This document shows, piece after piece, positions 49,060-51,368 of a stretch of DNA of 64,000 nt. Location of the stretch: assembly GCA_017621415.1 (NCBI GenBank), contig JAGATD010000043.1:1-64000 (forward strand), read 5' to 3'. Positions within the stretch are counted from its first letter, which is position 1. Every line of letters begins with the position of its first letter. The DNA comes from Clostridia bacterium (GTDB lineage Bacteria > Bacillota > Clostridia > Oscillospirales > CAG-272). Both the position numbers and the translations under genes were made by a program. A model generated the notes under the pieces. It saw nothing but the letters and a program-made list of their open reading frames with translations, ran no database searches and was not told the origin of the DNA.

Positions 49060-49542
49060 TTAATATCCATTTTTTGGACTTATATTTTTACAGTCGGATA
49101 TAATTCTTGAATATAGCTCTTTATCAATTCCGCTAAAATTCTTGAGATTATATATCTGCCTTGTTTTTTCTATGCATAATTCGGTTTCTTTGGAATAATA
49201 GGGCGATGAATGCATTCGATGGAATATTCCGTAAAAATCTAATATTGCCGCTATTTTTTTGTTAATATCACGTATATTTTCACCGTAGCTGCCCGGAAGA
49301 AGCGGGAATTTCATATCATAATCGCTATCCTCCATAGCAATATAATCCTCATACAAAAGCTCAAAGGTCGCTCTGTCAACCACCCCCGATTGATTTATTC
49401 CCTTGTTTTTTTGAAATAATAATACCTCATTGCGAGTATTTTCATCATAAATGCCGCTTAGGGGAATATGATTATCCGAAATTTGAAACAAATAACGCTG
49501 TATTTCCTTAACAGCATTTCTTTTATCGCTTATATCGTACAC
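49060..49542 (-). CDS. Protein with two peptidoglycan-binding-like repeats, no signal peptide
   Basis: 160 residues with two PG_binding_1-like helical repeats (AVKEIQRYLF to ATFELLYEDY, and NIRDINKKIAAILDF to KELYSRIISD). The first repeat is well conserved (SGIYDENTRNEVLLFQKNKGI), the second degenerate. There is no signal peptide or catalytic domain. GTG start, with AAGGAG seven bases upstream. Located 12 bases downstream of the SpoIID-like gene, so it is co-transcribed. A role in spore cortex or coat is inferred from neighbours. Confidence 0.72.
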   Translation of the reverse strand: MYDISDKRNAVKEIQRYLFQISDNHIPLSGIYDENTRNEVLLFQKNKGINQSGVVDRATFELLYEDYIAMEDSDYDMKFPLLPGSYGENIRDINKKIAAILDFYGIFHRMHSSPYYSKETELCIEKTRQIYNLKNFSGIDKELYSRIISDCKNISPKNGY

Positions 49543-49554
49543 AAGTATGCTCCT

Positions 49555-50952
49555 TTATGATATATCGTATCCGGGATACTGTCCGGAGGCGGCTCTGTTA
49601 CCTGTATAAAGGTCGTCATATACACTTGTAACAGCATTCCAAGTTGGAGCCGAAACACGGTCGGGCTCTCCCGTAAGATTAAATATTTCTTTAAACACAC
49701 GAACCTGCTCTGCGGTTGCGCTTCCGAATATTCCGTCTACATTAACCTTTGGTATCTCGGGGTAGCTTTCGGCAATAAAGTTTAAATACTCCTGAAGAGC
49801 TCTTACATCGTTACCCTCGGTTCCGGGTCTCAGAATTCTGCCTGGAAAGGGAAGAATTCTGCCGCTGTAAAATTCATAATCAATTTCGGCAATAAAGCTT
49901 TGGTAAACGCTCTCAATTTTATTAAAAGTCTCTCTGTTAACCGCTCCTGTTTCAGGCAGACCGTAGGTTTTCTGAAAGGAGCGGACCGAAGCTTCTGTTA
50001 TTGGGCCGAACGAGCCGTCAAAGCCAGCGGATAAAACGCTCTGTACAAAAAGAGCAATGTAGCTTAAATAGTACTGTACGGTAAGCACTCCGTCACCCGT
50101 TGCGCCTGAGCTAAGCTCGCCTGTGTATCTTGATGTAATATCCTCAACCGTCAACCCCTCCGAGCTTACTGTATACAGCTTTTTCACCGCGTTATATATC
50201 GCCTGTATTCTATTCCAGGTTGCGCGACCCACAAGACCGTCGGGAGTTAGGTTAAATACCTCTTGAAATTTTCTTACACTGTTCTCGGTACTGCTGCCGA
50301 AAATACCGTCAACAGGATAGATTTTAGGTATTCCCGGGAAATTTGCGGATATTCTGTTAAGCCGCCTTTGTATAAGCTCAACCTCAAAGCCCGAGTCTCC
50401 GGCTCCTAAAGTAACAGAGGGAGCCAGGGCAGGGGAATCTCCTACAGGAACATTTTCTACAATACTTATATCATTACCGTAATATCTTTGCAAAATAGAG
50501 AAGTAATCGAGCCCCTCTTCCGCAAGTCTTACGCTGCCCCATTGCTCAAGTCCGTTGCAGCTGACCTCAACACCGTCGCAGAACTCGGCAAAAAGAGGCT
50601 CAATATTTCCGTCACGTCTTATATAGCTGTTGAATATCTCGTCAACAAGCTGCGAAATATTAGAATAAATTTCCCTTTGATATACATATGTCTGGTCGTA
50701 GGCAGGGGAATTTGTTATATCAAAGTTGTAGCCTCGGTTTCGGTAAAATCCGGTATAAAAGCGGTTAAGCGCAACCGAAATCTGTGCCAGAATATTTGCT
50801 CTCAAAGCCTCCTCGGGCCAGGTAGGATAAATTTCGCTTGATGCAACATTTTTTATGTATGATGCAAAGCTCTCTGTTACGTTCATAGCATCCGAATCGG
50901 GCGAGCCGAGATGTATAACGATTTCTTCGGGAATTATAGGTTCAAAAGCCAT
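49555..50952 (-). CDS. SpoIID-like domain fused to three peptidoglycan-binding repeats
   Basis: 465 residues. Residues about 25-130 resemble the SpoIID/LytB domain (SFASYIKNVASSEIYPTWPE, then EALRANILAQISVALNR and RGYNFDITNSPAYDQTYV), the lytic transglycosylase fold of engulfment. Three PG_binding_1 repeats follow (about 190-260, 275-345, 370-445), each with an FQ/FK.xxNL.xxG pattern. Unlike SpoIID it has neither a signal peptide nor a membrane anchor, so as read it stays in the cytoplasm, possibly the mother cell, from where coat proteins assemble. The catalytic Glu of SpoIID may be the one in ASSEIYP. AAAGGAG precedes the ATG. Confidence 0.75.
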   Translation of the reverse strand: MAFEPIIPEEIVIHLGSPDSDAMNVTESFASYIKNVASSEIYPTWPEEALRANILAQISVALNRFYTGFYRNRGYNFDITNSPAYDQTYVYQREIYSNISQLVDEIFNSYIRRDGNIEPLFAEFCDGVEVSCNGLEQWGSVRLAEEGLDYFSILQRYYGNDISIVENVPVGDSPALAPSVTLGAGDSGFEVELIQRRLNRISANFPGIPKIYPVDGIFGSSTENSVRKFQEVFNLTPDGLVGRATWNRIQAIYNAVKKLYTVSSEGLTVEDITSRYTGELSSGATGDGVLTVQYYLSYIALFVQSVLSAGFDGSFGPITEASVRSFQKTYGLPETGAVNRETFNKIESVYQSFIAEIDYEFYSGRILPFPGRILRPGTEGNDVRALQEYLNFIAESYPEIPKVNVDGIFGSATAEQVRVFKEIFNLTGEPDRVSAPTWNAVTSVYDDLYTGNRAASGQYPGYDIS

Positions 50953-50972
50953 TGTTTACTCCTTTGTTATTT

Positions 50973-51368
50973 TTATATCGGTGCAAGGTCTTCATTAGCG
51001 TTTATATTTCCTAATGGGTAATTTCCGCCACCCTGCGCAGACGGAATCATTGCTATAAGCTGCTCGGAATTTATTCCCTCAAATACAGGTACGTTGTATA
51101 ATCTTTTTGTAAAATATCCGTCCTTTACGATTTCTATGTCATAAACCGCAAAGGGAACCTCCGACGGAGACGGAGACTCGGACAGCTCTCTTGCAGGCGC
51201 AGGGAGGCTAACCCTGTCTGTAACTCCGTCTCTGTCTGTTAAGAGAGAGTATACTACATTGCGGTTTTCCTCCTCGGCGCCTCTTATTCTAACTATTGCC
51301 CCCTCCACAGGCAAAGCGCCTCCTGCGGTATAGGCCCTGACGGTCATATAACCTGTTTTGTTTAACAT
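50973..51368 (-). CDS. Ig-like/carboxypeptidase-regulatory-like domain protein
   Basis: 131 residues, beta-rich. The pattern GYMTVRAYTAGGALPVEGAIVRI, later DRDGVTDRVSLPAP and YDIEIVKDGYFTKRL, is that of carboxypeptidase-regulatory-like/CnaB-type beta-sandwich domains. No signal peptide or sortase motif. The start is the ATG seven bases after GGAGGT, which rules out an upstream ATG eight codons earlier. It heads a three-gene set with the two PG-binding-repeat genes; a structural spore-surface role is plausible but unproven. Confidence 0.7.
   Translation of the reverse strand: MLNKTGYMTVRAYTAGGALPVEGAIVRIRGAEEENRNVVYSLLTDRDGVTDRVSLPAPARELSESPSPSEVPFAVYDIEIVKDGYFTKRLYNVPVFEGINSEQLIAMIPSAQGGGNYPLGNINANEDLAPI

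What the first reader, a model, noticed from the sequence alone, without database searches (positions are those of the whole stretch)
49060..51368. Signal-less SpoIID-like/peptidoglycan-repeat protein with two small partners
Seen: a SpoIID-like domain plus three PG-binding repeats with no signal peptide, with a two-repeat protein downstream and a beta-sandwich protein upstream in one operon. Known SpoIID is a membrane-anchored engulfment enzyme. A cytoplasmic version suggests a coat- or cortex-assembly machine that works from the mother cell side, or a scaffold that uses the folds without cell-wall contact.
Basis: partly seen in the sequence, partly recalled or inferred. Interest (0 to 1): 0.55.

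Follow-up and report, generated by a model that had tools for sequence, protein, structure and literature searches.

The report
Split spore cortex-lytic enzyme operon
Three neighbouring genes encode, in separate pieces, an enzyme related to one that digests the wall of bacterial spores when they wake up, and in the genomes sampled this split version occurs without the protease that normally switches the enzyme on.

Summary
The 465-aa protein is not a new cytoplasmic SpoIID. It is a relative of SleC, the signal-less spore cortex-lytic transglycosylase of clostridia (PDB 9h68, E 5.5e-67). The upstream beta-sandwich protein is SleC's N-terminal pre-domain as a separate gene (structure match to 9h68, E 4.7e-8). 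The downstream protein adds two peptidoglycan-binding repeats. Together they equal a 5-repeat "SleC2" cut into three genes. The trio recurs in 78 of the 80 closest loci. On a tree of catalytic domains all 102 split copies form one group beside two unsplit 5-repeat proteins. The cut removes the pro-segment and the Arg-Gln site that YabG cuts in SleC.

In 196 genomes of the class, Csp proteases (SleC activators) occur in 7, exactly the 7 with canonical one-repeat SleC, and in none of the 25 with only the split or 5-repeat form. The operon follows sporulation (SpoIVA in 31 of 32) and upstream regions are enriched in sigma-K-like promoters. Best reading: a mother-cell-made cortex hydrolase not activated by Csp cleavage. 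Germination function and the trans role of the pre-protein are inferred, not shown.

The parts
50973..51368 (-). Gene 1: 131-aa beta-sandwich protein, counterpart of the N-terminal pre-domain of SleC
   Evidence: phmmer to 9h68 aa 54-169, E 1.5e-5; AlphaFold2 pLDDT 90; Foldseek top hits are the four chains of 9h68, best E 4.7e-8
49555..50952 (-). Gene 2: 465-aa SleC-type catalytic protein with three peptidoglycan-binding repeats
   Evidence: phmmer to 9h68, E 5.5e-67; Foldseek E 1.1e-23, 44% identity; Pfam SpoIID and PG_binding_1
50452..50943 (-). SpoIID-like catalytic domain of gene 2 (aa 4-167); Glu40 at 50833-50835 is the predicted catalytic residue
   Evidence: profile A1; Glu in 113 of 113 rows; that this Glu is the catalytic one is recalled from SpoIID/SleC work
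49615..50400 (-). Three peptidoglycan-binding repeats of gene 2 (aa 185-254, 283-351, 377-446)
   Evidence: L095
49060..49542 (-). Gene 3: 160-aa protein with one clear and one weak peptidoglycan-binding repeat (aa 6-68, 84-150)
   Evidence: Pfam 43.8 bits; family profile 38 and 16 bits
51453..51461 (-). Possible -10 element CATATATTA of a sigma-K/E type promoter; no matching -35 AC element here
   Evidence: enrichment across related loci. A consensus match, not evidence of use

Best explanation
The operon encodes a spore cortex-lytic enzyme of the SleC superfamily whose single chain (pre-domain, SpoIID-like catalytic domain, five peptidoglycan-binding repeats) has been cut into three genes. 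It is made late in the mother cell, as SleC is, and deposited at the cortex without a signal peptide. Gene 2 is translated without the pro-segment that is removed from SleC, so it needs neither the YabG cut nor the Csp cut. The separate pre-domain protein most likely binds gene 2 non-covalently, as a folding chaperone and perhaps an inhibitor; gene 3 adds wall-binding sites. At germination the enzyme degrades cortex, probably triggered downstream of a GerA-type receptor. Shown: homology, one gene fission, conserved trio, missing processing segment, absence of Csp in the sampled genomes, link to sporulation, promoter enrichment. Inferred: enzyme activity, cortex location, role in germination, binding among the three proteins, trigger.
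For: Homology of genes 1 and 2 to one chain, 9h68. Trio in 78 of 80 loci. Split copies are one side of a supported branch (97/86) next to unsplit 5-repeat proteins. RQ site and pro-segment core present in canonical copies (RQ in L112-L114, L116, L117 and L123) and missing at the junction of the seven split examples aligned. Csp profile: 7 of 7 genomes with canonical SleC, 0 of 25 with only split or 5-repeat forms. G036, 100% complete, has the trio, SpoIVA and GerA but no Peptidase_S8 and no Hydrolase_2 domain. SpoIVA in 31 of 32 carriers. AC-N16-CATANNNT upstream in 24 of 98 loci against 5 of 444 control ORFs. sleC is sigma-K dependent in C. difficile (PMC3789822, passages).
Against: No experiment. 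The 5-repeat or split form coexists with canonical SleC plus Csp in G106 and G189, so it may do another job. 17 of the 25 non-canonical genomes' relatives are unknown for germination; 18 of these 25 genomes do contain some Peptidase_S8, which could process the enzyme. The strict sigma-K signature is in only 24 of 98 loci and not in the window. The window genome has one Hydrolase_2 protein that could also be a cortex enzyme. Interaction of genes 1 and 2 was not modelled.
Confidence: 0.6

Rival explanations
1. The 5-repeat lineage is a second mother-cell peptidoglycan enzyme, for example for cortex remodelling during spore formation or for mother-cell lysis, and canonical SleC or some other enzyme does the cortex lysis of germination.
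For: Coexistence with canonical SleC and Csp in G106 and G189; SleC2a/b coexist with SleC in C. botulinum Group II with untested function (PMC5083711, passages); a separate branch on the tree.
Against: G036 has no other enzyme of the tested cortex-lytic families; in G000 the only Hydrolase_2 protein lacks the PG-binding repeat of SleB.
Confidence: 0.25
2. It is a germination enzyme still controlled by proteolysis: another protease (YabG or an unrelated one) cuts or removes the separate pre-protein.
For: YabG cuts the SleC pre-domain off (PMC6464247, PMC10681294, passages); 76 of 101 split pre-proteins have a Lys or Arg in the last 20 residues.
Against: No conserved RQ site in the split pre-protein tails aligned; gene 2 starts at the catalytic domain (median 5 residues before it). 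YabG itself was not searched for.
Confidence: 0.1
3. One reading: a catalytically inert scaffold or a coat/cortex assembly machine.
For: No signal peptide; several wall-binding repeats.
Against: The predicted catalytic Glu is invariant in 113 of 113 rows, and the catalytic region is far better conserved (mean column identity 76%) than the pre-domain (29%).
Confidence: 0.05

Closest known systems
SleC, spore cortex-lytic enzyme of C. difficile and C. perfringens (PDB 9h68)
   Same: Same pre-domain and SpoIID-like catalytic domain, peptidoglycan-binding repeat, no signal peptide; sporulation-linked
   Different: SleC is one chain with a pro-segment, an RQ processing site and one repeat, and its genomes carry Csp; here three genes, no pro-segment, 3+2 repeats and no Csp
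SleC2a/SleC2b of C. botulinum Group II (PMC5083711, passages)
   Same: SpoIID/LytB domain with 4-5 PG-binding domains, 792 and 698 residues; the window trio adds up to 756 residues (131+465+160) with 5 repeats. Unsplit relatives of that size were fetched here: L115 (794 aa) and L118 (833 aa)
   Different: SleC2a/b are single chains; their own sequences were not compared here, so the link rests on architecture and size
SpoIID, engulfment transglycosylase
   Same: Distant homology of the catalytic domain (Pfam SpoIID 27.1 bits)
   Different: SpoIID is membrane anchored; the window protein is far below the TIGR02870 cut-off (25.6 against 234.75 bits) and has no anchor

Membership tests
SleC superfamily | Catalytic domain homologous to SleC rather than to SpoIID | tested here: met
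   9h68 E 5.5e-67, SpoIID structures E 0.17 or worse; Foldseek 9h68 E 1.1e-23 against SpoIID 5i1t E 2.6e-3
SleC superfamily | SleC-type beta-sandwich pre-domain | tested here: met
   present, but as a separate upstream gene
Canonical SleC zymogen | Pre-domain, pro-segment and enzyme in one chain, with the Arg-Gln cleavage site | tested here: not met
   junction alignment
Canonical SleC zymogen | Csp protease in the genome | tested here: not met
   no Peptidase_S8 match in G000; no Csp match at 1e-60
Canonical SleC zymogen | Single peptidoglycan-binding repeat | tested here: not met
   3 repeats in gene 2 and 2 in gene 3, the last weak
Canonical SleC zymogen | Sigma-K dependent expression | tested here: inconclusive
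   signature enriched across loci, 24 of 98 against 5 of 444; only a -10 half in the window
Canonical SleC zymogen | Needed for cortex hydrolysis at germination | not testable with these tools
   needs mutants and assays
SleC2a/b type | SpoIID-like domain with 4-5 repeats in one chain | tested here: not met
   same total, but spread over two genes
SpoIID, engulfment enzyme | TIGR02870 cut-off and N-terminal membrane anchor | tested here: not met
   25.6 against 234.75 bits; no hydrophobic N-terminus
SleB spore cortex-lytic enzyme | TIGR02869 cut-off and Hydrolase_2 domain | tested here: not met
   73.7 against 236.5 bits; no Hydrolase_2 match

The most novel reading that the evidence does not exclude
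One gene fission turned a proteolytic zymogen into a non-covalent switch: the pre-domain, now a separate protein, chaperones and holds the enzyme in the dormant spore and lets go when the receptor or calcium-dipicolinate signal arrives. A large group of gut spore formers would then germinate by a Csp-free, protease-free route of cortex lysis.
Probability: 0.3. Interest if true: 0.7.

Novelty: new variant of a known kind. Interest (0 to 1): 0.5.

Why it matters
How spore formers without Csp proteases start cortex lysis with a SleC-type enzyme is open; PMC8953710 (passages) notes that even where membrane receptors and Csp coexist the link is unclear. The split operon names the candidate enzyme, and its parts can be mixed in a tube, so the roles of the pre-domain and pro-segment in restraining SleC become directly testable. 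It also corrects the reading of these genes as a cytoplasmic SpoIID.

Tried and rejected
A SpoIID ortholog was rejected on TIGR02870 and the missing anchor. SleB was rejected. A chance neighbourhood was rejected by the trio in 78 of 80 loci; those 80 are the best of 589 confirmed stretches, so they favour close relatives. PF00082 as a test for Csp was too broad (139 of 196 genomes) and was replaced by a Csp profile with a cut-off of 1e-60; weaker Csp relatives would not be seen there. A sigma-G promoter found no support (0 of 99, 0 of 98). Rfam and ARAGORN showed only two tRNAs, outside the operon. Paper searches bearing on a split SleC or its distribution; none of the titles and abstract starts listed points to a split SleC, and subscription journals and preprints are not in that library. 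The paper on structure 9h68 was not found, so its inhibition mechanism is not used. YabG, SpoIIM, SpoVA and SASP genes were not searched for.

Full report
Observation. The three genes exist as described. The 465-aa protein has a SpoIID-like domain and three peptidoglycan-binding repeats; the downstream 160-aa protein has one clear and one weak repeat; the upstream protein is a beta-sandwich by AlphaFold2 (pLDDT 90). None has a strongly hydrophobic N-terminus by a simple hydropathy test.

Identity. The best solved relative of the 465-aa protein is C. difficile SleC in its pre-pro form, 9h68: E 5.5e-67 over aa 4-260 and E 1.1e-23 by structure. The upstream protein matches the N-terminal pre-domain of the same chain by sequence (E 1.5e-5) and by structure (E 4.7e-8). 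So two of the three genes are parts of one known protein, and the third carries more wall-binding repeats.

Architecture and history. Among 80 related loci (best of 589 stretches) the order pre / catalytic+repeats / repeats-only is kept: the pre gene lies upstream in 79 (the miss, L026, starts at a contig end), a repeats-only gene downstream in 78 (L012 ends 47 bases on; L072 has none). In a survey of 196 genomes of the class, a catalytic-domain profile found 35 strong copies in 32 genomes (E 5.5e-65 or better; the next match is 1.7e-8), each with a pre-domain match beside it or in the same frame. By open frame these are 8 canonical one-chain SleC, 2 one-chain 5-repeat proteins and 25 split copies; architectures were read in fetched DNA for all but the split copies of G089, G144 and G146. 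Variants of the split form keep 4 or 5 repeats in the catalytic gene (G091, G118; G057), have one repeat in the third gene (for example G126, G175, G189), or show no third gene (G197). A maximum-likelihood tree of 113 catalytic domains puts the canonical enzymes in one group (100/98) and everything else in another (100/98), with the two unsplit 5-repeat proteins at its base and the 102 split copies on one side of a branch (97/86). The bootstrap had not fully settled, the root is a midpoint, and L115 and L118 are long branches.

Where the cut lies. In canonical copies the pre-domain is followed by RQ (R113-R115 in L112, L113, L114 and L123; L120 and L121 do not show it), a PNTL stretch, a PPKIPE..KPLPPP stretch and VVLPEPVVP before the catalytic domain. 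PMC6464247 (passages) reports YabG cutting after R119 in C. difficile and processing after R114 in C. perfringens. In the seven split examples aligned, gene 1 ends at or near the PNTL position and gene 2 starts at the VVLPEPVVP position; the middle of the pro-segment is missing and the RQ site is not there. The fission therefore removes the stretch that is processed in SleC. That Csp cuts near the VVLPEPVVP stretch is recalled, not from a call.

Loss of the activator. Csp-type subtilases sit next to canonical sleC in five fetched loci (L112, L113, L114, L121, L123) and inside the same chain in a sixth (L117); none was found near a split locus (CspB_prodomain confirmed for L112 and L117, the two scanned). 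A Csp profile over the 196 genomes found exactly 7 genomes, identical to those with canonical SleC, and 0 of the other 25 SleC-family genomes. Counted by genome the association has p 3e-7, but five of the seven are one family, so the p value overstates independence, and the profile was built from neighbours of canonical sleC in five of the seven. G189 is informative: it carries both the split operon and SleC plus Csp, while three genomes of its genus (G055, G089, G144) have only the split form and no Csp match. In the window's genome no Peptidase_S8 of any kind was found; 7 of the 25 have none, the other 18 have other subtilases.

Link to sporulation. SpoIVA occurs in 31 of 32 SleC-family genomes against 109 of 164 others. 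G000 has SpoIVA and a GerA receptor. Upstream of gene 1 the pattern AC-N16-CATANNNT occurs in 24 of 98 loci against 5 of 444 control ORFs (p 6.6e-15); sigma-A-like pairs occur in 0 of 98 against 72 of 444. The loci are related, the control starts are mechanical ORF starts, and the window itself shows only the -10 half. C. difficile sleC is transcribed from a sigma-K promoter (PMC3789822, passages).

Function. G036, 100% complete, is the cleanest case: trio, GerA, SpoIVA and SpoIIP present; no Peptidase_S8 and no Hydrolase_2 domain (SleB/CwlJ). The split enzyme is then the only cortex-lytic candidate among the families tested. In G000 the one Hydrolase_2 protein carries a Cu_amine_oxidN1 domain and no PG-binding repeat, unlike SleB (SleB's architecture is recalled and agrees with TIGR02869). 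I therefore favour a cortex hydrolase of germination that is not activated by Csp. Against this, canonical and 5-repeat or split forms coexist in G106 and G189, and SleC2a/b of C. botulinum Group II was described as in need of study (PMC5083711, passages).

Compared with what is known. It works like SleC and belongs to the SleC superfamily, but it fails three features of the canonical zymogen (one chain with pro-segment and RQ site, Csp in the genome, one repeat). It is best called a split SleC2-type enzyme. The paper searches made (listed under Tried and rejected) showed no description of a split SleC.

Noticed in passing
G000 and its genus, 25 genomes: The genus keeps SpoIVA (23 of 25) and GerA (23 of 25) but shows no SpoIIP (0 of 25) and no SpoIID-domain match other than 17 single weak ones in frames of 466-511 aa, the size of gene 2. 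Most other families of the order sampled have both engulfment proteins. PMC7924749 (passages) reports a cluster including Oscillospiraceae that lacks SpoIID and mostly the rest of the DMP complex. How these engulf is open.
   Followed up: partly
L117:4821-8063 (G205): A 1080-aa open frame joins a Csp-type subtilase (CspB_prodomain, Peptidase_S8) to a complete pre-domain, SleC catalytic domain and one repeat: activator and zymogen in one chain.
   Followed up: partly
L073:4555-7925 (Intestinibacillus massiliensis): Tandem duplication: pre gene, a 334-aa catalytic gene with two repeats, a 470-aa catalytic gene with three repeats, then the repeats-only gene.
   Followed up: no
L119:7098-7586 (G213): An orphan pre-domain gene (162 aa) with no catalytic SleC domain found on the 14.5 kb fetched.
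   Followed up: no
L030:1784-2926 and L080:4026-5981: Pre-domain open frames with long proline-rich N-terminal stretches (380 and 651 aa from the first start codon; true starts unknown).
   Followed up: no
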